Origin: a bacterium
GTDB taxonomy: Bacteria > Myxococcota_A > Bradymonadia > UBA7976 > UBA1532
Assembly: GCA_030426085.1 (NCBI GenBank)
Contig: JAUHYW010000081.1
Coordinates: 1 to 45,438, forward strand
DNA: 45,438 bases
Reading direction: 5' to 3'
Part shown: one piece after another, positions 9,087-44,682 of the stretch
Layout of the letters: each line of letters starts with the position of its first letter
How positions within the stretch are numbered: the stretch's first letter is position 1
The notes under the pieces: generated by a model
The model's input: only the letters and a program-made list of their open reading frames with translations
Told to the model about the DNA's origin: nothing
Databases searched by the model: none
Made by a program: the position numbers and the translations under genes

Positions 9087-9289
9087 GACACCTCCATCGT
9101 CGGTCGGGGGGCGGCACCATAGCGAAGCGCGTCCGGCGCACCGCAGTGCAAAGACTTGCACCGCGGCCTTCGGTATCGCGCCGGCCGGGCGGGCGCTTTG
9201 TCCGACCGACCCTCTTGCGCCCACCGGCCCGGATCCGCTCTCTTTGGCCCGCGGCGCCCCCGGGGAGTCGGGCGCCGGGGGAGGACAGC

Positions 9290-12034
9290 ATGTCGCGGTA
9301 TATCGCCGCTTTCGTGATTCTGATCGCCGGGCCGCTCCTGACCGCGTGCAGCGAGGACGCGCCGGCCGATCCGCAGGAGGAGACGCCCGACGGGGGCATG
9401 CCGATGGAGGGCTGCGAGTCGGACTTCGCCTGCGGCGCGGGCCAGATCTGCAACATGGGCCAGTGCCGGGCCGGGCAGTGCAACCTCGAGCGCACCTGCC
9501 CGATGGGCCAGACCTGCGATCCGGCCGACTTCACGTGCAGCGACGAGAGCGAGCCGGGCTGCACCGCCGACGCCGAGTGCGCCGTCGGCTTCTGTATCGA
9601 CGAGACCTGCCAGGACGTGCAGTGCGCCCGGGACGAGGACTGCGACCCCAACGAGCAGTGCTCCGAGCAGAACCGCTGCCTGCCGATGATCGCCGCCTGC
9701 GTCGACGGGGACGAGGACGGCTACGGCATCGGCATGGACTGCCTGGGCATCGACTGCGACGACGGCGACCCGAACATCAACCCCGGCGTCGAGGAGAACG
9801 GCCAGACCCGCTGCGACGACGGGGTCGACGACGACTGCTCGGGGGCCGACGCCCGCTGCGGCGAGCGCGATCAGGACATGGACGGGGTCACCGACCGCGG
9901 CGGGGACTGCGACGACGGCGACCCCGAGGTCAACCCGAACACCGACGAGGTCCCGTACAACGGCAAGGACGACGACTGCGACCCCGAGACGAGCGACGAC
10001 GACGTCGACGGCGACGGGTCCATCGCCGAGGAGGCCGGGGGCGACGACTGCGACGACCGCGCGCCCCAGATCTACCCCGGCGCCCGGGAGATCGCGGGCG
10101 ACGGCATCGACCAGGACTGCGACGGCATGGACCGCGAGCCGAGCATCGGCGACGCCGACGGGGATGGCTTCTCGGAGCTGGACGGGGACTGCAACGACGA
10201 GGATCCGGCGGTCAACCCCGATGCGCTCGAGGTGCCCTACAACGGCAAGGACGACGACTGCAACCGGGCCACGCCGGACAACGATCTGGACAACGACACC
10301 TTCCCCTCGCCCATCGACTGCGACGACGAGCGGCCCCGGGTGAACCCCGCCGAGGTCGAGGTCTACTACAACGGCCTGGACGACGACTGCGACCCGAGCA
10401 CGGCCGACGACGACGCCGACGGGGACGGCTTCGCCGCCGCCGAGGTGGGCGGGCCCGACTGCAACGACCGGGCGGCGGCGGTCAACCCCGACGGGCTCGA
10501 GGAGAACTACAACGGCCTGGACGACGACTGCGACCCGACGACCCCCGACGACGACCTGGACGACGACGGCTTCGGGCGGGACGAGGACTGCGACGACAGC
10601 GACCCCGCCCGCAACCCGGGGGTGGTGGAGAACGCGACGACCCTGTGCGACGACGGCGTCGACCACGACTGCCGGGGCGGCGACGTGCAGTGTGACGCCG
10701 ACGCGGTCGACGGGGACGGCGACGGGGTGCCCGACGATCAGGACTGCGCGCCGGAGGACCCGACCGTGCCCGGCCCCCGGGAGATCGTGGGCAACGGCGT
10801 CGACGACGACTGCGACCCCGCGACCCCCGATGAGCTGGCGGCGTGCGACGACGACGTCTTCGACGTCCAGGCGCCCAACGACGCGGTCGGCGACGCGCTC
10901 GGCGTCGAGGACGGCAACACCACCGGGGTGCAGTACGGCGACCTGCGCATCTGCCCGGGGGACGACGACTGGTACGTGATCGCGATCGGGCAGGACGACG
11001 GGCTCGAGGTCGACATCCGCTTCTCGCACGCCGAGGGCGACCTCGACCTGCGGCTGGTGCGGGTCGAGGCCGACGGCAGCACGACCCCCATCGACAGCAG
11101 CGTCTCGACGACCGATCGCGAGACGGTCTACCTGCGGCGGGCCCCCGAGGCGGGCACCTACGCGGTGCGGGTCTACGGCTACGAGGGCGCCGAGGGCGGC
11201 TACACGATGACGGTCAACGTGTTCGAGGGCTGCACCGACGACCCCGAGGGCCTCGACGCCGAGCACGGCGACGACCGGGGGTCGGCCACCCGGCTGCCGC
11301 CGGTCGACGAGACCCGCCAGATCTGCGACTACGACGACGACTTCTACCGCTTCGACGTGGACGCGGCGACCGAGGTGCGCATCGAGGTGCTCTTCCCCCA
11401 CGCCGAAGGCGACATCGACGTCGAGCTGTACGACCCGGCCGGCGACCGCATCGCCGACGCGATCAGCTCCACCGACAACGAGCTGATCGAGATCGAGCTC
11501 ACCCCGGGCACCTACACCCTGCGGGTCTACGGCTATCTGGGCGCCCGCAACCGCTACAACGTCTTCGTGGCCAGCAACGAGACCGACAGCGTGCGGGTGG
11601 AGTACGAGATGGACGAGGGCATCCCCGACGCCGCCGACGGCCAGCGCGGGGTGCTGGAGGTGAACCTGCCGATCGAGGCCCCGCCGGGCGCGATCATCCG
11701 GGAGTTGGTGGTGCGTGATCTGATCGTGCGCCACGCATTCCTGCCCGATCTGGTGGTGAGCTATCTGTGGGACGACGACCCGGTGGTGGTGGTGTGGAAC
11801 CGGGCGGGGGACGAGAACGGCCGCGACGGCCGGCTCGATGACGACGTGCTGAACAACTTCTTCCTGCCCGGCAGCGACGACGACATCGACTTCGACGACC
11901 GCCGCCACCGCGAGTTCGCCGGCCGCCCGGCCAACGGCACGTTCACCCTGCGCATCGAGGACACGGTGAGCGGGGGCGTGGGGCAGTTCGAGCGCATCGA
12001 CCTCGAGGTGGAGTACCTCGTGCCGCTGCGCTGA
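9290..12034 (+). CDS. Large MopE-like calcium/metal-binding surface lipoprotein with PPC and P-domains
   Basis: The 914-residue lipoprotein has the leader MSRYIAAFVILIAGPLLTAC with Cys20 lipidated. A Cys-rich segment (about 45-140, DxxCxxGQxC pattern) comes first. Seven to eight MopE-type repeats follow (about 150-530), each of the form DCDDxDPxxNPxxxE-xxNGxDDDCD. These are predicted metal- or calcium-binding loops of the PF11617 type. Two bacterial pre-peptidase C-terminal (PPC)-like domains come next (about 545-760, both with a TYxxRVYGYxGA strand). The end resembles a proprotein-convertase P-domain (GTFTLRIEDTVSGGVGQFE). No catalytic domain is visible, so it is likely a structural or adhesive surface protein. 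The start at 9290 is supported by GGGGGAGG upstream and by the signal peptide. Confidence 0.88.
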   Translation: MSRYIAAFVILIAGPLLTACSEDAPADPQEETPDGGMPMEGCESDFACGAGQICNMGQCRAGQCNLERTCPMGQTCDPADFTCSDESEPGCTADAECAVGFCIDETCQDVQCARDEDCDPNEQCSEQNRCLPMIAACVDGDEDGYGIGMDCLGIDCDDGDPNINPGVEENGQTRCDDGVDDDCSGADARCGERDQDMDGVTDRGGDCDDGDPEVNPNTDEVPYNGKDDDCDPETSDDDVDGDGSIAEEAGGDDCDDRAPQIYPGAREIAGDGIDQDCDGMDREPSIGDADGDGFSELDGDCNDEDPAVNPDALEVPYNGKDDDCNRATPDNDLDNDTFPSPIDCDDERPRVNPAEVEVYYNGLDDDCDPSTADDDADGDGFAAAEVGGPDCNDRAAAVNPDGLEENYNGLDDDCDPTTPDDDLDDDGFGRDEDCDDSDPARNPGVVENATTLCDDGVDHDCRGGDVQCDADAVDGDGDGVPDDQDCAPEDPTVPGPREIVGNGVDDDCDPATPDELAACDDDVFDVQAPNDAVGDALGVEDGNTTGVQYGDLRICPGDDDWYVIAIGQDDGLEVDIRFSHAEGDLDLRLVRVEADGSTTPIDSSVSTTDRETVYLRRAPEAGTYAVRVYGYEGAEGGYTMTVNVFEGCTDDPEGLDAEHGDDRGSATRLPPVDETRQICDYDDDFYRFDVDAATEVRIEVLFPHAEGDIDVELYDPAGDRIADAISSTDNELIEIELTPGTYTLRVYGYLGARNRYNVFVASNETDSVRVEYEMDEGIPDAADGQRGVLEVNLPIEAPPGAIIRELVVRDLIVRHAFLPDLVVSYLWDDDPVVVVWNRAGDENGRDGRLDDDVLNNFFLPGSDDDIDFDDRRHREFAGRPANGTFTLRIEDTVSGGVGQFERIDLEVEYLVPLR

Positions 12035-15212: not shown

Positions 15213-17723
15213 TCAGCGCGCCCGGCGCCGCAGCAGGCCGAGCACGAGCAGCGCGAGCCACGGGGTGGGGCTCGACGAGCGCCCCGGCACGGCGCATCCG
15301 GTGGTGCCGCCGTCGGCCGGGACGTCGGGCTCGGCGCCGATGCCGGCGTCGACCACCGTGGCGTCGGGCGGCAGATCCATGTCGACCGGGTCTTCGACCT
15401 CCGGCGGCTCGTCGAGCACCGTCTCGTCCTCGGTCATCGGCCGGGCCGACTGCCAGTCGGCGATGCACTGGGCGGTGCCGGCGTCGACCACGCACCGCTG
15501 GCGCTCGGGGCAGCGCACCCCGAGGCACGGGTCGGGCGCGCAGGCCCCGTCGACGCAGGTCTCGCCCTCGGGGCAGGCGTCGGGGTCGCACCCGTCGGCC
15601 ACGCACAGCCGGTCGATGCACAGCTCGCCGGCCACGCAGGGCGGGGTGCAGCCGGTCGGCTGGCACAGGCCGTCGACGCAGGCCTCGCCCGCCGCGCAGC
15701 TCAGCGCGGCGCAGCTGAATACGCACTGCCCCTCGCGGCAGAAGTTGCCCTCACCGCAGTCGACCCCGGCGCAGGGGTCGGGCACGCACGCCTCGCCGAT
15801 GCACATCTCGCCGGCCGGGCAGCCGGTGTGGGCGCAGACGTCGGGGCCGCAGGCGCCGTCGGCGCAGACCTCGTCGGCGGGGCACTCGACGTCGGCGCAG
15901 GCGTCGAAGCAGACCCCGCCCCGGCAGATCTCGCCGGCGGGGCACTCGACGCCGGCGCACAGGGGCACGCAGGCGTCGCGCAGGCACTGCATGTCGTCGG
16001 GGCAGCGGCGGTCGCGGTCGCAGGGCCAGGCGCACAGGCCCTCGACGCAGCGGGTGCCGTCGGGGCAGGCGGCGTCTTCGTCGACCACCCCGTCGCAGTC
16101 GGCGTCGACGCCATTGCACAGGTCGGGCGGCAGCGCGCCGCAGCCCCCGCAGGCGTTGCGGACGGTCTCGTCGATCTCGCCGTCGCAGTCCTCGTCGGTG
16201 CCGTCGCAGGTCTCGGCGATCGCGCCCACCGTCGCCCGGCAGATCACGTCGCCCCGGGCCGAGCAGACCCGGACCCCCTCGGCGCAGGCCCCCGGCAGGC
16301 CGGTGGGGCACGGCGTCGCCTCGATCACCGGGGCGCCGTCGAGCCGCTGGTCGGTCAGCCCGTCGCAGTCGTTGTCGATCGCGTCGCACACCTCGGGGTT
16401 GCCGTCGGGCACACACAGGTAGCGGTCGCAGGCGTCGCCGATGCCGTCCCCGTCGCTGTCGTCCTGGCTGCGGTTGATCACCTTGGGGCAGTTGTCGCAG
16501 GCGTCCCCCACCCCGTCCCCGTCCTCGTCGGCCTGATCGGGGTTGGGCACGTCGGGGCAGTTGTCCTCGATGCCGCACAGCCCGTCCTCGTCCAGGTCGA
16601 CGCAGATGCCGCCCAGCGAGCGCTCGAGCGTCAGCAGCGCCAGGGCGTGGCTCGACACCTGCGACCACCCGCCGGGGCCGATGCCGTCGTCCCACGCGCC
16701 GGCCGGGGTCTGCCACTGCAAGAGGGTGTAGGCGAAGTCGAAGTAGGCGCTCGTCGGCTCCTCGGGGAAGCCCAGCGCGGCCGGCTCACGCTCGCCGAAG
16801 TCGTCGTGGTACAGCGCGCCGCCGAGGCCGTCGTCCTCGGAGACCGCCAGGGCCTTCTCGGCGGCCCAGAAGTAGTAGTAGGCCCCGATGTCGCCGAAGC
16901 CGCCGATGGCGGTGTCGGTCTGCCAGTTCAGGGCGGCCCAGGCCAGCGCGCTCTGCACCCGGGGGTCGCCGGCGGGCACGCCCGACAGCCGGTGGCACCA
17001 CACCCCCGACGCGGTCATCGTCGAGGCCGAATCCGGCCAGCCGCCGCCCGGCGAGTAGGCCAGCCCGCCGTCGGGGTTCTGGTCCTGCATCAGGTAGTTG
17101 ACCACGTTGGGCAGCGGCGCGGCGGCGCCCTCGACCCACGCCTCGGACGCGGCGAGCGCGGCCACCGCGAAGGTCGTCGTCGTCAGCGGCCCGGTGCCCG
17201 GGTTGCGGGGGGCGCCGTAGCTCCAGCTCCCGTTCTGCTCCTGGTTGCGCTGGAGGGCGACGACGCCGTTGGCGAGGGCCTGGCGGGTGGTGACCGCGGC
17301 CCCGATCTCGTCGGGCCCGAGCCCGGCCTGCCACGCGCTCAGGGCCATCAGCGCGCCGCCGGTCTCGTAGCTCGACGCGTTCTGGTTGGGGTTGGTCAGC
17401 CCGGGGGTGGTCGAGATGATGGTGTCCATCAGGCGGATGGTCATCGCCTGGTCGAGCGGCTCGAGGCCCTCGAAGCCCAGCCGGCGGCCCTCCCAGCCGA
17501 TGCCGTCGGTCTGCTCGAGCACCGCGAGCAGCGCCAGCGGGCTCTCCCGATCCTGCCGTACGTTGCCCCGACCGGCCTCCTGCTGGCGGATCCAGTCGAT
17601 GCCCCGGTCGATGGCCTCGTCCACCGCGCAGGCGAAGGGCGTGCCCCCGCATTGAGCGGCGGCGTCGAGGGGGATGAAGGCGATGAAGGACGACAGCGCG
17701 GCAGCGGCCAGCCAACGATACAT
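15213..17723 (-). CDS. MYXO-CTERM surface protein: alpha-toroid plus TSP3, MopE-like and Cys-rich repeats
   Basis: The 836-residue protein has a signal peptide (MYRWLAAAALSSFIAFIPLDAAAQ). An alpha/alpha-toroid-like domain follows (about 25-380), with prenyltransferase/squalene-cyclase-like repeats (SPLALLAVLEQ, NGSWSYG, GGLAYSPGG). Two thrombospondin type-3 loops (DEDGDGVGDACDNCP, DSDGDGIGDACD) come next. Three short MopE-like loops (CDAIDNDCDG, CDGTDEDCDG, CNGVDADCDG) and about nine Cys-rich units (CPxGExCxxGxC) lead to an acidic Asp/Pro linker. The final 29 residues form a MYXO-CTERM signal: Cys, hydrophobic helix, RRRAR. Such tails are cut and sorted to the cell surface by myxosortase. The loops should bind calcium. 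Its partner or substrate is unknown. A GGGGAG site supports the start at 17723. Confidence 0.88.
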   Translation of the reverse strand: MYRWLAAAALSSFIAFIPLDAAAQCGGTPFACAVDEAIDRGIDWIRQQEAGRGNVRQDRESPLALLAVLEQTDGIGWEGRRLGFEGLEPLDQAMTIRLMDTIISTTPGLTNPNQNASSYETGGALMALSAWQAGLGPDEIGAAVTTRQALANGVVALQRNQEQNGSWSYGAPRNPGTGPLTTTTFAVAALAASEAWVEGAAAPLPNVVNYLMQDQNPDGGLAYSPGGGWPDSASTMTASGVWCHRLSGVPAGDPRVQSALAWAALNWQTDTAIGGFGDIGAYYYFWAAEKALAVSEDDGLGGALYHDDFGEREPAALGFPEEPTSAYFDFAYTLLQWQTPAGAWDDGIGPGGWSQVSSHALALLTLERSLGGICVDLDEDGLCGIEDNCPDVPNPDQADEDGDGVGDACDNCPKVINRSQDDSDGDGIGDACDRYLCVPDGNPEVCDAIDNDCDGLTDQRLDGAPVIEATPCPTGLPGACAEGVRVCSARGDVICRATVGAIAETCDGTDEDCDGEIDETVRNACGGCGALPPDLCNGVDADCDGVVDEDAACPDGTRCVEGLCAWPCDRDRRCPDDMQCLRDACVPLCAGVECPAGEICRGGVCFDACADVECPADEVCADGACGPDVCAHTGCPAGEMCIGEACVPDPCAGVDCGEGNFCREGQCVFSCAALSCAAGEACVDGLCQPTGCTPPCVAGELCIDRLCVADGCDPDACPEGETCVDGACAPDPCLGVRCPERQRCVVDAGTAQCIADWQSARPMTEDETVLDEPPEVEDPVDMDLPPDATVVDAGIGAEPDVPADGGTTGCAVPGRSSSPTPWLALLVLGLLRRRAR

Positions 17724-17826
17724 GGGTAGTCTCCCCAGTCCGGTCGAGCTTGTGGCGAAGGCGAATGAGTGCACCATGTAGATTGCCCCACGTCTACGCG
17801 CGGCGGATCTTACACGGGCGTTTCAC

Positions 17827-36794: not shown

Positions 36795-36854
36795 ATCCCG
36801 TCCGGCGTGCGGGTCCGCGCGACCCGGTACTCCACGAACCTCGGGAGGTCCTGC

Positions 36855-38543
36855 TTGAGCCGTCGCGCCGCGCCCGCCCTCGACGCCGCCGCGATCGGCC
36901 TGATGGCGCTGGCGATCCTCGCGACGGGCTGCCGCAGCGACCGCTCCCCGCCCATCGAGCGCCGCTCGCCCCCGCCGAAGGCCGGGCAGACGGCGGCGGC
37001 GACCGACACCGCCCGCGACGGGGCGCAGACCACCTTCGAGACCGGGAAGGACCGCTTCGTCTTCGCCATCGGCGGCGAGCCGGAGACCCTCGACCCGGGG
37101 CGGGCCCGGGGGGTCAACGAGAACAAGATCATCAGCAACCTGTTCGAGGGGCTCGTCGAGGTGCCCCTCGGCGCCGGGCCGCCGGTGCCCGGGGTCGCCG
37201 AGCGCTGGCAACGCTCGGAGGACGGCCGCGAGTACACCTTCCACCTGCGCAAAGACGCGAAGTGGAGCAACGGCGACCCGGTCACCGCCGAGGACTTCCG
37301 CTATAGCTGGATGCGGGTGCTCGACAAGAGCCTCGCGGCGCCCTACGCCGACATGCTGTACGTCATCGAGGGCGCCCGGGACCACTACGAGGGGCGGAAC
37401 CCCGACCCGGAGTCGGTCGCGATCACCGTGGTCGACCCCCACACGCTGAAGGTGCGGCTGGCCTACGTGGCGCCGTTCTTCCTCGAGCTGTGCGCCTTCT
37501 ACACCTACCGCCCGGTGCACCGGGCCACCGTCGAGGCGCTGCCCGACCGCTGGACCCGGCCGGAGCACATCGTCGTCAACGGGCCCTACACGCTCGTCGA
37601 GTGGAGCCTCAACCAGCGGCTGCGGGCGACGCAGAACCCGCACTACTGGGGGCGGGACGCGCTGCACATCCGCGAGTTCGAGGCGCTGCCCATCCAGGAG
37701 AACACCACGATGCTCACCGTCTACGAGGGCGGCGGGCTGGACTGGAACGGCTCGCTCGATCTGCCCGCGATCAAGATCAGCACCCTCGAGCGGCGGCCCG
37801 ACTACCACGTGAACCCGTACCTCGGGGTGTACTTCTACCGGTACAACGTCACCCGCGAGGCGCTGGCCGACAACCGGGTGCGGCAGGCGCTGGCGATGGC
37901 CGTCGACCGCGAGGCGATCACCACGGTGATCAAGATGGGCATCACCCCCAGCGCCACGATGGTGCCGAAGATGGGGGCCTACGTCTCGGCCGGGACCGAC
38001 GTGCGCTTCGACCCCAAGCGGGCCCGCGCGCTGCTCGCCGAGGCGGGCTACCCCGGCGGCGAGGGCTTCCCCCGGATGCAGGTGCTCTACAACACGCAGG
38101 AGAACCACAAGCGCATCGCCGAGATGATCCAGCAGATGTGGGCCCGGCACCTCAACGTGCAGGCCGACCTCGAGAACCAGGAGTGGAAGGTCTACCTCAA
38201 GTCGCAGCGCGACCTGGACTACGACATCAGCCGCTCGGGCTGGATCGGGGACTACCTGGACCCGATGACCTTCCTCGGTATGTGGAGCACGGGCAACGGC
38301 AACAACAACACCGGCTGGTCGGACAAAGAGTACGACGGCCTGCTCGAGCGCGCCCGCCACGAGGGCGACGAGCAGCGGCGGCTCGATCTGTTGCGTCAGG
38401 CGGAGGGCATCCTGCTGCAGCGGGGGCCGGTGCTGCCGATCTACCACTACGCGCGGGCCTATCTGCTCAACCCGGCGGTCGAAGGCTTCGAGCCCCACCC
38501 GCTCGACCTGCACCCGATCAAGTACATCCGAAAGACCCGATGA
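36855..38543 (+). CDS. Oligopeptide-binding lipoprotein, OppA-like (first copy)
   Basis: The 562-residue protein is an SBP_bac_5 family periplasmic binding protein. Starting at TTG 36855 gives GGGAGG 7 nt upstream and a leader ending LAILATGC. The ATG at 36807 would add 16 residues before this and lacks a ribosome site. FAIGGEPETLDPGRARG, DGREYTFHLRKDAKWSNGDPVTAEDFRYSW and the C-terminal YDISRSGWIGDYLDPMTFLGMW are OppA hallmarks. It captures peptides outside the inner membrane for the OppBCDF permease encoded downstream. It is clearly a paralogue of the next gene, sharing SWxRVLD, PYLGVYFYxYNV and WIGDYxDPMTFL. Confidence 0.92.
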   Translation: MSRRAAPALDAAAIGLMALAILATGCRSDRSPPIERRSPPPKAGQTAAATDTARDGAQTTFETGKDRFVFAIGGEPETLDPGRARGVNENKIISNLFEGLVEVPLGAGPPVPGVAERWQRSEDGREYTFHLRKDAKWSNGDPVTAEDFRYSWMRVLDKSLAAPYADMLYVIEGARDHYEGRNPDPESVAITVVDPHTLKVRLAYVAPFFLELCAFYTYRPVHRATVEALPDRWTRPEHIVVNGPYTLVEWSLNQRLRATQNPHYWGRDALHIREFEALPIQENTTMLTVYEGGGLDWNGSLDLPAIKISTLERRPDYHVNPYLGVYFYRYNVTREALADNRVRQALAMAVDREAITTVIKMGITPSATMVPKMGAYVSAGTDVRFDPKRARALLAEAGYPGGEGFPRMQVLYNTQENHKRIAEMIQQMWARHLNVQADLENQEWKVYLKSQRDLDYDISRSGWIGDYLDPMTFLGMWSTGNGNNNTGWSDKEYDGLLERARHEGDEQRRLDLLRQAEGILLQRGPVLPIYHYARAYLLNPAVEGFEPHPLDLHPIKYIRKTR

Positions 38544-38584
38544 GCCCCAGCCCGAACCGACGGACCCCCTGCGCCGGAGGACCC

Positions 38585-40270
38585 ATGAGCCACATGCCCC
38601 GCGCCGCGCGCCTGCTGGCGCTGTCTGCGCTCGCCGCCGCGGCGGTCGCGTGCAGCAGCAAGAACAGCACCGACGAGACCCCCGCCGGTGAGAAGGGCGC
38701 CGCCGCGACCGCCGACGGCGTCACCGCCGCCGACCGCAAGGAGCGCGACCCCCGGGTCTTCCTGCGCAGCCTCGGCGAGCCGGAGTACCTCGACCCGGGC
38801 CTGATCAGCGAGTCGGAGGGCGGCATCGTCGCCCACGACACCTTCGAGGGGCTGTATCAGTACGGCCCGACCCACCGGGAGTGGGTGCCCGGGGTGGCCA
38901 AGAGCCACGAGGTCTCGCCCGACGGCCGCACCTGGACGTTCAAGCTGCGCGCCGACTCCAAGTGGTCCGACGGCACCCCGGTGACCGCCAAGGACTTCGA
39001 GTGGAGCTGGAAGCGAGTGCTCGACCCCAAGACCGCCTCGCGCTACGCGGGCATCCTGTGGGTCATCGAGGGGGCCAAGGACTACAACCAGAACCCGGAT
39101 GACGCCAAGGCCGCGGCGCTGCGCGACGCGGTCGGGGTCACCGCGCTCGACGACCACACCCTCCAGGTCGAGCTGGTCGCGCCGACGCCGTACTTCCTGC
39201 AGCTCACCGCGTTCTACACCTACGCCCCGGCGCCGCGGCACGTCATCGAGAAGCACGGCGACAAGTGGGCCCGCCCGGAGAACATCGTCAGCAACGGCCC
39301 GTGGAAGGTCGTCGAGTGGACCTCGCAGCAGCAGATCGTGGCCACCGCGAACCCCCACTACTGGGACAAGGCCAGCCTGCCGTTCGACAAGATCGTCTAC
39401 CGCATCACCCAGGAGAGCGGCCCGGCCCACAACATGTACCTGGGCAACGAGCTGGACTACCTCGACAGCAAGATCCCGCCGTCGATGCTGACCAAGTACA
39501 CCCGCGAGCGCTTCCCCGACATGAAGACCACCCCTTATCTCGGGGTGTATTTCTACATGTACAACGTCAAGAAGCCGCCGTTCGACGACGTGCGGGTGCG
39601 CAAGGCGCTCAACCTCGCCATCGACAAGAGCAAGATCGGCAAGTTCGTGGTCAAGGGCGGGCAGGCGCCGGCGGCCAACATCGTGCACCCGGGGCTGAAG
39701 GAGATGGGCTACGCCGTGCCCCAGGGGCCCGAGTTCGACCCCGAGAAGGCCAAGGCGCTGCTCGCCGAGGCGGGCTACGCCGACCCGAAGACCTTCCCCC
39801 GGTTCCAGATCAGCTACAACACGCTCGAGGGGCACAAGCTCGTCGCCGAGTACATCCAGCAGCAGTGGAAGAAGAACCTCGGCATCGAGTGCGACCTCGA
39901 CAACATGGAGTGGAAGGTGCTGCTCAAGAAGCAGCACGACCGCGACTTCGCGGTGAGCCGCTCGGCCTGGATCGGGGACTACATCGACCCGATGACCTTC
40001 CTCGACCTGTGGGAGGGCGACAATCCCAACAACCGCACCAACTGGGCCAACCCGAAGTACGACGGGCTCATCGCCGCCGCCCGCTCCGAGGCCGACCCCG
40101 ACAAGCGGCTCGACCTCTTGCGGCAGGCCGAAGAGGTCTTCCTCGAGGAGGTCCCGGCGTTCGGCATCTACTTCTACGTCAAGCAGGATCTGGTCAAGCC
40201 GTGGGTCGAGGGCTATCAGCCGCACCTCCAGGGCATCCACGCCAGCCGCTACTTCAAAGTGAAGCTGTGA
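38585..40270 (+). CDS. Oligopeptide-binding lipoprotein, OppA-like (second copy)
   Basis: The 561-residue SBP_bac_5 protein has the leader MSHMPRAARLLALSALAAAAVAC and GGAGG before the ATG. It shares the full fold with the preceding gene (RSLGEPEYLDPGLISE, WTFKLRADSKWSDGTPVTAKDFEWSWKRVLDPKTASRYAGI, AVSRSAWIGDYIDPMTFLDLW). It differs in ligand-pocket loops, so the two may bind different peptide sets for one permease. It has more Lys codons (AAG) than its paralogue, the pattern of E. coli-type OppA. The two genes are 41 nt apart in one operon. Confidence 0.93.
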   Translation: MSHMPRAARLLALSALAAAAVACSSKNSTDETPAGEKGAAATADGVTAADRKERDPRVFLRSLGEPEYLDPGLISESEGGIVAHDTFEGLYQYGPTHREWVPGVAKSHEVSPDGRTWTFKLRADSKWSDGTPVTAKDFEWSWKRVLDPKTASRYAGILWVIEGAKDYNQNPDDAKAAALRDAVGVTALDDHTLQVELVAPTPYFLQLTAFYTYAPAPRHVIEKHGDKWARPENIVSNGPWKVVEWTSQQQIVATANPHYWDKASLPFDKIVYRITQESGPAHNMYLGNELDYLDSKIPPSMLTKYTRERFPDMKTTPYLGVYFYMYNVKKPPFDDVRVRKALNLAIDKSKIGKFVVKGGQAPAANIVHPGLKEMGYAVPQGPEFDPEKAKALLAEAGYADPKTFPRFQISYNTLEGHKLVAEYIQQQWKKNLGIECDLDNMEWKVLLKKQHDRDFAVSRSAWIGDYIDPMTFLDLWEGDNPNNRTNWANPKYDGLIAAARSEADPDKRLDLLRQAEEVFLEEVPAFGIYFYVKQDLVKPWVEGYQPHLQGIHASRYFKVKL

Positions 40271-40321: not shown

Positions 40322-41266
40322 GTGGTCCGCTTCATCATCCGGCGCCTGATCAGCTCGGTGCTGGTGCTGTTCGTGATCATCACCGCGTCGTTCTTCGTCA
40401 TGAAGGTGGCCCCCGGCGGGCCGTTCGACGCCGATCGCAAGCTGCCCGACGAGGTCAAGAAGAACATCGAGGCCAAGTACCACCTCGACAAGCCCCTGTG
40501 GCAGCAGTACGGGCTCCAGATGAAGAGCATCGTGCTGCACGGCGACTTCGGCCCGTCGATGAAGTACCCCGATCGCACGGTCAACGAGATCCTGGCCGAC
40601 GGGCTGCCGGTGAGCATGCTGCTCGGGGTGCAGGCCCTGATCATCGCCCTGATCATCGGGCTGCCGGCGGGGCTGATATCGGGGCTCAAACAGAACACGC
40701 TGACCGACTACACGGTGATGACCGGGGCGATGGCCGGGGTCTCGGTCCCCAACTTCGTGCTGGGGCCGCTGCTCATCTGGATCTTCGCGATCCAGTTCCA
40801 GTGGTTCGACGCGGCCAACTGGCACGGGCTGTCGAAGGGGCTGGGGCCGCACATCGCCACCAGCTTCCTGCCCAGCCTGACCCTGGGCATGTACTTCGCG
40901 GCCTACATCGCCCGGCTGACCCGGGGCGGCATGCTCGAGATCATCCGCCAGGACTACATCGGCACCGCCCGGGCCAAGGGGCTCGCCGAGAAGGTGGTGG
41001 TGATGCGCCACGCGCTCAAGGGCGCGATCATCCCGGTGGTCAGCTACCTGGGGCCGGCCTTCGCCGCGATGCTGACCGGCTCGGTGGTCATCGAGAAGAT
41101 CTTCAACATCCCCGGCCTCGGCACCCACTTCGTCAACTCGGCGTTCAACCGGGACTACCCGCTGGTGCTGGGCACGATCGTGCTCTACTCGGCGCTGCTG
41201 GTCCTGCTCAACCTGGTGGTGGACGTGCTCTACACCGTGCTCGACCCGCGGGTGTCGTATGACTGA
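40322..41266 (+). CDS. oppB: Oligopeptide ABC transporter permease OppB
   Basis: The 314-residue permease starts at GTG 40322 with GGAGGAG upstream. Six membrane helices are evident, starting MVRFIIRRLISSVLVLFVIITASFFVMKVAPGGPF. The EAA loop region is TRGGMLEIIRQDYIGTARAKGLAEKVVVMRHALKGAIIPVVSYLGP, the contact site for the ATPases. It forms the inner-membrane channel with OppC. The last 8 nt overlap the start of oppC (ATGACTGA). Confidence 0.95.
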   Translation: MVRFIIRRLISSVLVLFVIITASFFVMKVAPGGPFDADRKLPDEVKKNIEAKYHLDKPLWQQYGLQMKSIVLHGDFGPSMKYPDRTVNEILADGLPVSMLLGVQALIIALIIGLPAGLISGLKQNTLTDYTVMTGAMAGVSVPNFVLGPLLIWIFAIQFQWFDAANWHGLSKGLGPHIATSFLPSLTLGMYFAAYIARLTRGGMLEIIRQDYIGTARAKGLAEKVVVMRHALKGAIIPVVSYLGPAFAAMLTGSVVIEKIFNIPGLGTHFVNSAFNRDYPLVLGTIVLYSALLVLLNLVVDVLYTVLDPRVSYD

Positions 41267-42605
41267 GCCCCTGCACGACGGCGGCCCGCCGCGGGGCGAG
41301 TCGCTCGAGACGACCAGCAAGCGCCAGCTCGAGAAGGGCACCAGCCTGTGGGCCGACGCCTGGAAGCGGCTGCTCAAGAACCGGGCGGCGCTGGCCGGGG
41401 CGCTCATCGTGGCCTTCATGGCCCTGTGCGCGGTGCTGTTCCCGATCATCGAGAGCGAGTTCACCCGCTTCCGCTTCGACGAGCAGCACCTCTCGGCCCA
41501 GCCCAAGCCGGTCGGGGCCCGCAGCGTGCCCGAGACCCACTTCCGCGTCGACGCCGAGATGAAGGCGAAGTTCGGCTACATCGACGCCGACGGCAGCGGC
41601 GCCATCAGCCGGCAGGAGCTGGCGGCGGCGATGCGCATGGGGGAGTTCAACACCCTCGACTTCGACGAGAGCGGCGCCCTGGGCGCGGCCGAGCTGGCCG
41701 AGGCCCCGATCAACCTCATCAAGGACGACGCGGCGTATACGCTCCAGGTGCTCGACGGGGACGGCGACGGCGAGCTCTCGCCCGAGGAGGCGTTCGACGG
41801 CGAGCTGACCGACGTGATGCCCGAGAGCGAGGCCCGGTTCTTCATCGGCAAGTTCGACGCCGACGACGACCGCGAGCTGTCCGAGGCCGAGTTCCCCGGG
41901 CTGCCGCTGCCCGAGGTGCACTGGTTCGGCACCGACGAGCTGGGCCGGGACATGCTGACCCGGGTGGTGATGGGGGCCCGGGTCTCGCTGCTCGTCGGCT
42001 TCATCGCGACGATGGTCAGCTTCCTCATCGGGGTGATCTGGGGGGCGACCGCCGGGTTCTACGGGGGCAAGGTCGACAACCTCATGATGCGGTTCGTCGA
42101 TGTCATGTACGGCATGCCGTTCATGTTCCTGGTCATCCTGCTGATGGTGATCTTCCAGGACATGCCGGCCGATCGAAAACTCTTCCTGCTGTTCATGGCG
42201 CTGGGCGCGGTGCAATGGCTGACGATGGCCCGCATCGTGCGCGGGCAGGTCATCTCGCTCAAGGGGCGGGAGTTCGTCGAGGCGGCCCGGGCCATCGGGG
42301 TCGCCAAGCGGCGCATCATCTTCCGCCACCTCATCCCCAACGCGCTGGGCCCGATCATCGTCTACCTGACCCTGACGGTGCCCGCGGTCATGCTGCAGGA
42401 GGCCTTCTTGAGCTTCCTCGGCCTCGGGGTGCAGGCGCCCTACGCCTCGTGGGGCTCGCTGGCCGCCGAGGGGGCCAAGGCGTTCCGGGAGTACCCCTGG
42501 CTGATCATCTTCCCCGGCTCGGCGCTGGCGGTGACCCTGCTCTCGCTCAACTTCTTCGGTGACGGGCTGCGCGACGCGCTCGATCCCCAAGTGCGCAAGG
42601 ACTGA
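41259..42605 (+). CDS. oppC: OppC permease with a four-EF-hand insertion
   Basis: The 448-residue protein is some 140 residues longer than typical OppC. After the first membrane helix (about 43-63), and before the usual [25 protein letters not shown] entry at 223-247, there is an inserted domain with four 12-residue EF-hand loops: 109-120 ([12 protein letters not shown]), 134-145 ([12 protein letters not shown]), 166-177 ([12 protein letters not shown]) and 200-211 ([12 protein letters not shown]). Positions 1, 3, 5, 9 and 12 fit calcium coordination in nearly all; position 6 is Gly except Arg205 in the fourth. Standard topology puts the insert in the periplasm. The EAA loop ([28 protein letters not shown]) is intact, so transport should work. 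Calcium control of peptide import is an inference. Confidence 0.92.
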
Positions 42606-42607
42606 TC

Positions 42608-43606
42608 ATGCCCAGGAGCGACGACATCCTGCTGTCGGTGCGCGATCTCCGGGTGGAGTTCCGCACCGAGGGCCAGACCATCCGGGCGGTGGACGGGGTC
42701 GACTTCGACCTGCGCCGGGGCCAGACCCTGGGCATCGTCGGCGAGTCGGGCTCGGGCAAGAGCGTCACCTGCAAGTCGCTGATGCAGCTCATCCCGATGC
42801 CGCCGGGGCGCATCGCGGGGGGCACGGTCGACTTCGAGGGGCGCGACCTCTTGCGGCTCTCGCGGCGGGAGATGCGGGCCCTGCGGGGCAACGACATCTC
42901 GATGATCTTCCAGGACCCGATGACCAGCCTCAACCCGTTCCTCAAGGTGAGCCGGCAGCTCACCGAGGTGCTCGAGCTGCACCAGGGCATGAGCCGCAAG
43001 GAGGCCCGGACCGAGGCCATCGGCATGCTGGAGAAGGTGGGCATCCCCGATCCGGTCAAGCGCTTCGACCAGTACCCCCACCAGTTCTCGGGCGGCATGC
43101 GCCAGCGGGTCATGATCGCCATGGCGCTGTTGTGCCGGCCCAAGCTGCTCATCGCCGACGAGCCGACGACGGCGCTCGACGTGACGATCCAGGCCCAGAT
43201 CCTGGAGCTCATCAAGACCCTCAAGGACGAGGTGGGCACCAGCGTCATCCTCATCACCCACGACCTGGGGGTGGTGGCGGGCATGGCCGACGAGCTCTTG
43301 GTGATGTACGCCGGCAAGATCGCCGAGCGGGCCCCGGCCGGGCCGCTGTTCAAGCAGCCGGCCCACCCCTACACCGACGGGCTCTTGAAGTCGGTGCCCC
43401 GGGTCGACGAGAGCCAGCACACCCGCTTGCAGAGCATCCGCGGGCTGCCGCCGGTCGTCAGCGAGCTGCCCCCCGGCTGCCCGTTTGCGCCCCGCTGCGA
43501 CTACGCCACCGCGGCGTGCGGCCAGACCTACCCCGCGGCCCGGGACTTCGGCGACGGGCAGCAGGCCCACTGCCATCACCCGCTGCGGGAGGAGGTCGCC
43601 CGATGA
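42608..43606 (+). CDS. oppD: Oligopeptide ABC transporter ATPase OppD
   Basis: The 332-residue ATPase has Walker A GESGSGKS (45-52), a Q-loop at [12 protein letters not shown], signature [15 protein letters not shown], Walker [13 protein letters not shown] and switch His at ITHDLG. The C-terminal oligo_HPY segment with conserved Cys ([15 protein letters not shown], ending HCHHP) is typical of OppD/DppD. It powers import with OppF on the cytosolic face of OppBC. It begins 2 nt after oppC and overlaps the start of oppF (ATGA). Confidence 0.96.
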
Positions 43607-44682
43607 CGGCCGCGCTGAACAAGTCCGGCGGGGCGGCGGGCGACGTGCTGCTCGAGGTGCGCGGGCTGCGCATGCACTTCCCGATCTACAAGGGCGCGCT
43701 CATCCGCCGCGAGGTGGCCCGGGTCAAGGCGGTCGACGGGCTCGACTTCGAGATCTACGCCGGCGAGACGCTGGGGCTGGTGGGCGAGTCGGGCTGCGGC
43801 AAGTCGACCACCGGGCGGGCGATCGTGCAGCTCTACCGGCCGACGGCGGGCGAGGTGGTCTTCGACGGCACCGATCTGACCGCCGTCGCGGCGGCGCGCG
43901 GCGAGCGGGGGCTCTTCCCCTATCGGCGCCACATCCAGATGATCTTCCAGGACCCCTACGCCTGCCTCAACCCGCGCATGACGGTGGGCGACATCATCGC
44001 CGAGCCGCTGTTGACCCACCGGCTGGTCGACGGGCGGGACGCGGCGCTGGAGCGGGTGCAGGCGCTGATGGTCAAGTGCGGGCTCAACCCGCAGTACGTG
44101 CGGCGCTACCCCCACGAGTTCAGCGGCGGGCAGCGGCAGCGCATCGGCATCGCCCGGGCGCTGGCGACCAACCCCCGGTTCATCGTCTGCGACGAGCCGA
44201 TCTCGGCGCTGGACGTCTCGATCCAGGCCCAGATCATGAACCTGCTGCAAGACCTGCAGAAAGAGCTGGGGCTGACCTACCTGTTCATCGCCCACGACCT
44301 GGCGGCGGTGCGTCACATCAGCGACCGCATCGCGGTGATGTACCTGGGCCGGATCGTCGAGATCGCCGACTACGATCAGGTCTACGCCGACCCCCGCCAC
44401 CCCTACACCCGGGCGCTCATCTCGGCGGTGCCCATCCCCGACCCCGAGGTCGAGGCCACCCGGGAGCGGGTGGTGCTCGAGGGGGACGTGCCCAGCCCCA
44501 TCGACCCGCCTTCGGGCTGCCGCTTCCACACCCGCTGCCCGGCGCGCAAGGCCAACCCGCAGATCGCCGAGCGCTGCGTGCGGGAGGAGCCCACGCTGCG
44601 GGTCGTCGACGAGCGGGGCCACCGGGTCGCCTGCCACCTGTACGACATCGAGGAGCCGCGGCGCCCGGCCGAGGTGGCCTGA
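43603..44682 (+). CDS. oppF: Oligopeptide ABC transporter ATPase OppF
   Basis: The 359-residue ATPase has Walker [10 protein letters not shown]-loop [12 protein letters not shown], signature [15 protein letters not shown], Walker [13 protein letters not shown] and switch His at IAHDLA. The C-terminal Cys region ([12 protein letters not shown]) matches Opp[18 protein letters not shown]-type entry and the inserted basic loop before it are usual for OppF. It forms the heterodimer with OppD. It is the last gene of the operon; no hairpin terminator was found in the following 100 bp. Confidence 0.96.

What the first reader, a model, noticed from the sequence alone, without database searches (positions are those of the whole stretch)
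41259..42605. OppC permease carrying four EF-hand calcium loops in its periplasmic loop
The sequence shows four consensus EF-hand loops (residues 109-211) between the first transmembrane helix and the permease core of an otherwise intact OppC. EF-hands are well known as calcium sensors, but not as a built-in part of bacterial peptide permeases. In standard OppC topology this loop faces the periplasm, near the docked OppA. I infer that calcium binding may gate substrate delivery. Together with nearby TSP3/MopE-type acidic loops, this suggests an envelope tuned to calcium.
Basis: partly seen in the sequence, partly recalled or inferred. Interest (0 to 1): 0.8.

Follow-up and report, generated by a model that had tools for sequence, protein, structure and literature searches.

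The report
Peptide importer with calcium-binding loop domain
A membrane subunit of a bacterial peptide importer carries a built-in calmodulin-like domain with four predicted calcium-binding sites on its outward-facing side, and relatives in several families of the same phylum keep this domain, so it is real and probably useful rather than an assembly error.

Summary
The ORF at 41259-42605 (+) is an intact OppC-type permease. Its TM1-TM2 loop holds a 146-residue segment with four canonical EF-hand loops (residues 109-211) where E. coli OppC has about 13 residues. It is not a chimera: an EF-type insert at this place was found in 63 of 377 genomes of the phylum (35 of the 57 nearest, own genome included). 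None was detected in samples of four other phyla (0 of 199, 299, 144, 149; limited sensitivity). Ca-ligand columns are far more conserved than other insert columns; of 29 aligned class members 28 keep at least two ligand-complete loops and one keeps none. AlphaFold gives a confident fold. EF2-EF3 match a calmodulin lobe; EF1-EF4 pairing is inferred, as in lanmodulin. I infer a Ca-folded module beside the docked OppA, probably filled at ordinary periplasmic calcium and so mainly structural. A calcium or metal gate is possible but untested. The "calcium-tuned envelope" argument from nearby MopE motifs fails: at least 147 such matches lie in the genome. No paper listed in seven searches appeared to describe it. 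New variant of a known kind.

The parts
36807..38543 (+). OppA-type substrate-binding protein 1 (SBP_bac_5), probably a lipoprotein
   Evidence: Pfam SBP_bac_5 310.8 bits; best solved relatives OppA/MppA, E 2.1e-98; lipobox-like LATGC seen by eye
38585..40270 (+). OppA-type substrate-binding protein 2 (tandem paralogue), probably a lipoprotein
   Evidence: Best solved relatives OppA, E 3.2e-99; NCBIfam OppA 366 bits, under the equivalog cut-off 947; lipobox-like AAVAC seen by eye
40322..41266 (+). OppB-type permease of ordinary length
   Evidence: Pfam BPD_transp_1; NCBIfam OppB 370.8 bits, cut-off 388
41259..42605 (+). OppC-type permease with EF-hand insert (448 aa)
   Evidence: Pfam; E. coli OppC 8z21_B Z 28.9 over 278 residues
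41469..41906 (+). Segment standing in place of OppC residues 65-77: residues 71-216, the EF-hand module
   Evidence: Borders from the alignment to E. coli OppC; AlphaFold pLDDT 84 for residues 71-80 and 92-97 from residue 81
41583..41618 (+). EF loop 1 (residues 109-120)
   Evidence: Sequence; ligand-complete in 24 of 29 aligned class members
41658..41693 (+). EF loop 2 (residues 134-145)
   Evidence: Sequence; ligand-complete in 28 of 29
41754..41789 (+). EF loop 3 (residues 166-177)
   Evidence: Sequence; ligand-complete in 18 of 29
41856..41891 (+). EF loop 4 (residues 200-211)
   Evidence: Sequence; ligand-complete in 23 of 29
42608..43606 (+). OppD-type ATPase
   Evidence: Pfam ABC_tran and oligo_HPY; NCBIfam OppD 424.3 bits, under cut-off 575
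43603..44682 (+). OppF-type ATPase
   Evidence: NCBIfam OppF 439.5 bits, under cut-off 540

Best explanation
This is a subtype of the oligopeptide importer permease OppC, seen in the genomes searched only in the phylum of the window. A four-EF-hand module sits between TM1 and TM2, just before the conserved GTDxxGRD stretch that leads into TM2. Shown: the module is real, kept in place across families, folds confidently in prediction, and its Ca-ligand columns are conserved beyond the rest of the insert. Inferred: it faces the periplasm (OppC topology), binds Ca2+, and is folded by Ca2+ with EF2-EF3 as one lobe and EF1-EF4 as a second pair that closes the two ends of the insert above the membrane. 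Inferred mechanism: the Ca-loaded module forms a rigid platform or cap on the OppC side of the docked OppA. It would complement the scoop on the OppB side, help OppA dock and help hold released peptide in the cavity. At ordinary periplasmic Ca2+ it would be permanently loaded, so calcium is mainly structural.
For: Permease fold: E. coli OppC Z 28.9, 278 aligned, rmsd 2.0, 48% identity. Insert: its profile matches 422 solved chains at E 0.001 or better; the 60 listed are calmodulins or calmodulin-containing fusions and sensors, E 2.7e-19 to 1.2e-13. The EF2-EF3 region superposes on a calmodulin-type lobe, Z 8.2-9.0 with 53-82 residues aligned in the 50 rows shown, for example 5mwc_D rmsd 1.4 over 56. 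Selection: ligand columns have entropy 0.93 against 2.11 for other insert columns; 0 of 20,000 column permutations as low. All 29 aligned class members match OppC_N and EF-hand_6, _1 and _7 at E 0.001. In longer inserts outside the class the last EF loop was located in 18 of 19 and was ligand-complete in 18 of 18. Gene order OppA-B-C-D-F in 16 of 29 class loci, with 8 more cut by contig ends. Position: DppA caps DppB and DppC, and a DppB periplasmic scoop motif next to TM1 enters DppA (PMC12136057, passages). Precedent for an EF-like site at the binding-protein/permease interface: AlgQ2 (PMC5717064, passages).
Against: No binding or transport data. No model of the complex with OppA could be made here, so contact with OppA is inferred. 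L025 keeps the insert with 0 of 4 ligand-complete loops and 4 of 29 keep only two, so calcium is not strictly needed in each lineage. The insert evolves faster than the core (dN/dS 0.35, 0.73, 0.73 against 0.16, 0.14, 0.18). No insert was found in 22 of the 57 nearest genomes (several of these are incomplete). In 5 of 29 class loci no OppD/OppF gene follows OppC, although 1.3-7.0 kb were searched, so the five-gene operon is not general. VIA Z values of 8-9 are only moderate by that tool's own note.
Confidence: 0.5

Rival explanations
1. Calcium gate: binding of Ca2+ switches the module between states and thereby turns OppA docking or peptide release on and off as outside calcium changes.
For: Four canonical loops in the window protein, and 13 of 29 class members with all four complete; lanmodulin, a partial structural analogue, undergoes a metal-driven disorder-to-order transition (PMC10232371, passages); [quoted passage not shown]
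Against: Periplasmic Ca2+ is held to match or exceed outside levels and a bacterial periplasmic EF-hand protein binds at 13.7 uM (PMC9132961, passages), so sites of that strength would be nearly always full; L025 has no complete loop.
Confidence: 0.22
2. The module is a docking or tethering domain for something other than OppA (peptidoglycan, outer-membrane or matrix component, another protein), with calcium as a structural ion.
For: The site accepts unrelated domains elsewhere: OppC proteins L191, L193 and L200 from the phylum of a Planctomycetota locus carry a different insert of similar size there, so the loop can host accessory domains of varied purpose.
Against: No other partner is known; but looked only for opp genes, so none was really sought.
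Confidence: 0.15
3. The insert is a neutral, tolerated expansion that keeps an EF-hand fold for stability but does nothing for transport.
For: Insert dN/dS is higher than that of the core; partial loss of ligands in several lineages; not found in 22 of 57 near genomes.
Against: Kept at one site with conserved ligand columns across families; the EF1-EF2 gap is 13 in 29 of 29.
Confidence: 0.1
4. The module answers to another metal, for example lanthanides, as lanmodulin does.
For: Lanmodulin 8fns is Foldseek's second hit for the insert (E 3.4e-4, probability 1.00, TM-score by query 0.33, against 0.17-0.18 for most calmodulins listed); EF1-EF2 gap of 13, as in lanmodulin.
Against: Proline at loop position 2 in 1 of 112 loops and Asp at position 9 in 20 of 112; EF2-EF3 and EF3-EF4 gaps exceed 13 in each row; the TM-score is low.
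Confidence: 0.03

Closest known systems
E. coli OppC / DppC and M. tuberculosis OppC / DppC (type I ABC importer permeases; 8z21, 8z1v, 8j5q, 8wd9)
   Same: Same fold over the whole permease part (Z 23.7-28.9 in 13 rows); OppC_N plus BPD_transp_1 domains; the E. coli Opp models are the best NCBIfam matches for all six genes
   Different: E. coli OppC has about 13 residues where this protein has 146, and no EF-hands
Calmodulin-type EF-hand proteins (Pfam EF-hand_7/_6/_1)
   Same: Canonical 12-residue loops; EF2-EF3 superpose on a calmodulin-type lobe
   Different: Built into a membrane permease; EF1-EF2 gap is only 13; EF1 and EF4 seem to pair with each other (inferred)
Lanmodulin (periplasmic four-EF-hand protein; 8fns)
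   Same: Four EF-hands, a 12-13-residue gap between EF1 and EF2, and probably the same pairing (2-3 and 1-4; lanmodulin pairing from PMC10232371, passages)
   Different: Lanmodulins are free-standing, were searched for as proteins under 200 residues, have 12-13-residue gaps between adjacent hands and Pro at position 2 in at least one hand; the gap and Pro features are not met here
Cluster G substrate-binding proteins with an EF-hand-like calcium site (AlgQ1/AlgQ2, Smon0123, FusA)
   Same: Calcium site in an ABC importer; in AlgQ2 the motif touches the transporter (PMC5717064, passages)
   Different: There it is an EF-like site in the binding protein of sugar importers, here a four-hand domain in the permease of a peptide importer
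DppB scoop motif of DppABCDF
   Same: An accessory periplasmic element next to TM1 of a peptide importer permease, at the binding-protein side (PMC12136057, passages)
   Different: About 30 residues in the B subunit, two short helices, no metal mentioned in the passages seen; here in the C subunit

Membership tests
OppC/DppC permease family (Pfam OppC_N + BPD_transp_1) | Both Pfam domains above curated cut-offs | tested here: met
   42.7 bits (cut-off 23.9) and 115.5 bits (cut-off 26.4); 29 of 29 aligned relatives match both at E 0.001
OppC/DppC permease family (Pfam OppC_N + BPD_transp_1) | Fold of solved OppC/DppC | tested here: met
   8z21_B Z 28.9, 278 aligned of 278, (predicted model)
OppC/DppC permease family (Pfam OppC_N + BPD_transp_1) | Gene set A-B-C-D-F | tested here: met
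   Window ORFs. Among 29 class loci: all five in 16, 8 cut by contig ends, 5 with no D/F gene found downstream
NCBIfam equivalog OppC (PRK15406, NF011935) | Score above the equivalog cut-off | tested here: not met
   300.6 bits against 433; so not filed as the E. coli OppC equivalog
EF-hand calcium-binding domain | Pfam EF-hand models above cut-off | tested here: met
   EF-hand_7 45.1 (30), EF-hand_6 41.3 (25), EF-hand_1 38.9 (25.4), EF-hand_5 38.4 (25.9)
EF-hand calcium-binding domain | Ligands at loop positions 1, 3, 5, 12 | tested here: met
   4 of 4 loops in the window protein; 93 of 116 loops in the 29 aligned class members
EF-hand calcium-binding domain | Binds Ca2+ | not testable with these tools
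   Needs purified protein
Lanmodulin | 12-13 residues between adjacent EF-hands | tested here: not met
   EF1-EF2 gap 13 in 29 of 29, but EF2-EF3 18-40 and EF3-EF4 20 or 22
Lanmodulin | Proline at loop position 2 in at least one hand | tested here: not met
   None in the window protein; 1 of 112 loops in the set
Lanmodulin | EF2-EF3 and EF1-EF4 pairing | tested here: inconclusive
   EF2-EF3 lobe; EF1-EF4 inferred from strands 115-116 and 207-208; coordinates were not inspected
Cluster G substrate-binding protein | EF-like calcium site within a substrate-binding protein | tested here: not met
   The site is in the permease ORF

The most novel reading that the evidence does not exclude
A metal-folded gate within a type I ABC importer: without calcium the TM1-TM2 module is disordered, and with calcium it folds, lanmodulin-like, with EF1 and EF4 clasping the two ends of the insert above the membrane. 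Folding would switch OppA docking and peptide import on, so many lineages of one phylum would tie peptide uptake to outside calcium by a domain built into the permease.
Probability: 0.15. Interest if true: 0.85.

Novelty: new variant of a known kind. Interest (0 to 1): 0.6.

Why it matters
In the cases I came across, EF-type calcium sites of ABC importers sit in the binding protein (cluster G). A conserved four-hand module inside the permease, near where the binding protein should dock, would be a new place for metal control or metal-dependent assembly of an importer. It is testable with a ready control set: the same importer without the insert in E. coli, and natural relatives with four, three, two or no complete loops. 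If it is only structural it still shows that the OppC TM1-TM2 loop is a site where different phyla have added different periplasmic domains.

Tried and rejected
Assembly chimera: rejected; separate assemblies of other species carry the insert. Chance: rejected. Calcium-tuned envelope from neighbouring MopE motifs: rejected as evidence; at least 147 matches in the genome and 2 matches to EF-hand_7. Membership of lanmodulin: rejected. XopAW-type calcium-binding effector family: it matched the EF part at 46.6 bits, far under its cut-off of 120, which I take as ordinary EF-hand likeness.

One origin of the insert: on the core tree the 33 class-level rows are one clade (97/96), but two rows without insert (L076, L080) stand beside the outgroup insert rows at weak support. 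In a second tree all 31 insert-bearing rows need 3 changes, and one clade for them is neither shown nor rejected (p-AU 0.283). That tree used 68 of the 116 rows: I left out 10 long or unsure rows, four of them insert-bearing (L141, L145, L146, L147), and thinned 38 near copies. itself had dropped L143, L144 (short) and L153 (no motif). The shared border motifs are my reason for preferring a common origin.

Lipobox count in relatives' OppA genes (13 of 28): not used, because my script cut many N-termini short. Plasmids: tblastn with the insert, no match. The VIA list for the insert did not show lanmodulin among 50 rows; this excludes nothing. A model of OppC with OppA was not possible with the single-chain predictor.

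Literature: seven searches joining EF-hand with permease, OppC, ABC importer, transporter or prokaryote terms. No listed title or abstract start described an EF-hand OppC; most listed papers were seen only in the listing. Passages were read in PMC7438024 (the only paper with both EF-hand and OppC; unrelated), PMC10574481, PMC9132961, PMC13171946, PMC5717064, PMC5287374 and PMC12710961. An eighth search was too broad to tell. The library holds only open-licence papers.

Full report
Check of the observation. The ORF 41259-42605 (+) is a 448-residue OppC-type permease. Pfam finds OppC_N at 29-64, EF-hand models at 100-127 and 157-212, and BPD_transp_1 at 258-447, over their cut-offs. Shuffling the 146-residue segment 20,000 times gave one loop of my canonical pattern 106 times and never more. 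Against E. coli OppC the alignment runs 13-70 to 8-64 and 217-445 to 78-301, so about 13 residues stand where this protein has 146. The segment is acidic (23% Asp+Glu against 7% in the permease core).

Surroundings. Upstream lie two OppA-type binding proteins in tandem (36807-38543 and 38585-40270), both with a lipobox-like stretch seen by eye, then OppB (40322-41266). Downstream lie OppD (42608-43606) and OppF (43603-44682). For each of the six genes the best NCBIfam model is the matching E. coli Opp model, and each scores under that model's curated cut-off. The nearest solved binding proteins are OppA and MppA. The likely cargo is therefore oligopeptides; this is inference from family.

Gene order in relatives. 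Among 29 class loci of the genome-contig scan, 16 have OppA, OppB, OppC, OppD and OppF in that order and 8 are cut by contig ends. In 5 (L056, L062, L063, L064, L065) no OppD or OppF gene was found after OppC, with 1.3 to 7.0 kb of DNA there. So in one lineage the ATPase genes are not next to the permeases.

Spread. With the protein as query, 35 of 57 near genomes (own included) have the EF-type insert; in 22 no match reached it, and several of those genomes are incomplete. With a profile of insert plus flanks (A3), 65 of 377 genomes of the phylum match at E 1e-20. I looked at the protein of each of the 65: 63 have an EF-type insert and two (G188, G372) have none. The 63 are the same 35 plus 28 in other families. 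Three of the 35 (G036, G039, G050) are cut by a contig end, and G039's remaining part has no ligand-complete loop. The 28 carry one to three ligand-complete loops in what I could read. Of 19 of these examined in one script, the loop just before the final [FY]xGxP motif was located in 18 and was ligand-complete in 18. A record titled Bacteroidetes (L044) falls within the window's family in the tree and is probably misnamed.

Other phyla. The same profile found no full insert in 199 genomes of the phylum of a Planctomycetota locus (matches in 26 genomes), 144 of the phylum of a Bdellovibrionales locus (18) and 149 of the phylum of an Acidobacteria locus (5), all at E 1e-20, and in 299 of the phylum of a Teredinibacter locus, Pseudomonadota (4, at E 1e-22); each listed match began at model position 176 or later, near the GTDxxGRD end. 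Only the best candidates per genome are scored in such searches (for example 12 of up to 151), and a much diverged insert could fall under the threshold, so rare cases could be missed. Three proteins from the Planctomycetota search, read in full, have a different insert without EF loops at the same place (L191, L193, L200).

Conservation. In the 29-row alignment (A1; 29 of the 35 near genomes that have the insert) the ligand positions 1, 3, 5 and 12 have mean entropy 0.93 bits, other insert columns 2.11, the core 0.60; 0 of 20,000 permutations were as low. This permutation ignores relatedness of rows. Complete loops per protein: four in 13, three in 11, two in 4, none in 1 (L025). Per loop: 24, 28, 18 and 23 of 29. 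Against three near relatives the insert has dN/dS (NG86) 0.35, 0.73, 0.73 and the core 0.16, 0.14, 0.18: looser constraint on the insert, still under 1. The gap between loops 1 and 2 is 13 residues in 29 of 29.

Origin. On the tree of the core alone the class-level rows form one clade (97/96). Adding the outgroup insert rows, one clade for all is not rejected and not shown (p-AU 0.283; rows left out are told under Tried and rejected). The two groups share border motifs: a DEQH-like motif and a PPG-like motif after TM1, and an EF loop followed by EFPGxP shortly before the LGTDxxGRD stretch. I take a single old gain with later growth and losses as more likely than two gains; this is inference.

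Structure. AlphaFold with 48 rows gives mean pLDDT 89.4; within the insert 84 for residues 71-80 and 92-97 from residue 81. The permease part matches E. coli OppC (Z 28.9, rmsd 2.0, 278 aligned) and then DppC and mycobacterial OppC/DppC. The insert alone gives mean pLDDT 89.4. Its profile finds 422 solved chains at E 0.001; the 60 listed are calmodulins or calmodulin-containing fusions and sensors (E 2.7e-19 to 1.2e-13). VIA-align matches span mainly residues 118-185 of the protein, that is EF2 and EF3 as one calmodulin-like lobe, Z 8.2-9.0; the tool warns that such values are moderate for helical folds. DSSP strands at 115-116 and 207-208, and at 141 and 173, fit pairing of EF1 with EF4 and EF2 with EF3; I did not have coordinates to check contacts. 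The same pairing is reported for lanmodulin (PMC10232371, passages), which is Foldseek's second hit (probability 1.00, TM 0.33 by query length). The lanmodulin signs of lanthanide use are missing: proline at position 2 in 1 of 112 loops, Asp at position 9 in 20 of 112.

Mechanism. In DppBCDF the TM1-TM2 region of DppB and DppC is periplasmic, the binding protein caps DppB and DppC, and a DppB scoop next to TM1 enters it (PMC12136057, passages). The basic residues before TM1 fit an inside N-terminus. A folded module of about 146 residues at this place in OppC should therefore lie beside OppA. Periplasmic calcium is held to match or exceed outside calcium, and the periplasmic EF-hand protein EfhP binds at 13.7 uM (PMC9132961, passages). 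Sites of that strength would be filled nearly always, which favours a structural ion over a sensor. Members that have lost ligands but keep the insert point the same way. In cluster G binding proteins an EF-like calcium site exists and in AlgQ2 it touches the transporter (PMC5717064, passages), so a metal site at this interface has a precedent, on the other partner.

Verdict. Real, conserved, apparently not described in the papers that seven searches listed, and a new variant of a known kind. Calcium binding, contact with OppA and any gating remain to be shown.

Noticed in passing
L191, L193, L200 (phylum of a Planctomycetota locus): OppC-type permeases with a different insert of about 170 residues, without EF loops, at the same TM1-TM2 place.
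   Followed up: partly
L056, L062, L063, L064, L065: In one lineage (codes g14 and g17 of family f3) OppA, OppB and EF-type OppC are together (OppA cut off in L064) but no OppD/OppF gene was found after OppC within 1.3-7.0 kb; the ATPases may lie elsewhere.
   Followed up: partly
9146-12031 (+): ORF of 962 aa with seven MopE-type metal-binding stretches (PF11617) and a PPC domain; at least 147 such matches occur in this genome.
   Followed up: partly
15213-17777 (-): ORF with a weak MopE-type match (two stretches) and a weak prenyltransferase-toroid match, both under their cut-offs.
   Followed up: no
36807-40270 (+): Two OppA-type genes in tandem; among the 29 loci two OppA ORFs before OppB were seen in L039, L041 and L042, all of the window's family.
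   Followed up: no
L146 and L219 (genome G212): One genome carries two permeases with the EF-type insert.
   Followed up: no
L018-L020, L022, L024, L025, L031-L034, L036-L038, L058, L059: In one family (code f6 and its named records) the insert is longer between EF2 and EF3 and holds two conserved cysteines, perhaps a disulphide near a partly degenerate EF3.
   Followed up: no
L044: Contig titled Bacteroidetes (GSL.Bin8) whose OppC falls within the window's family in the tree; probably a misnamed genome.
   Followed up: no
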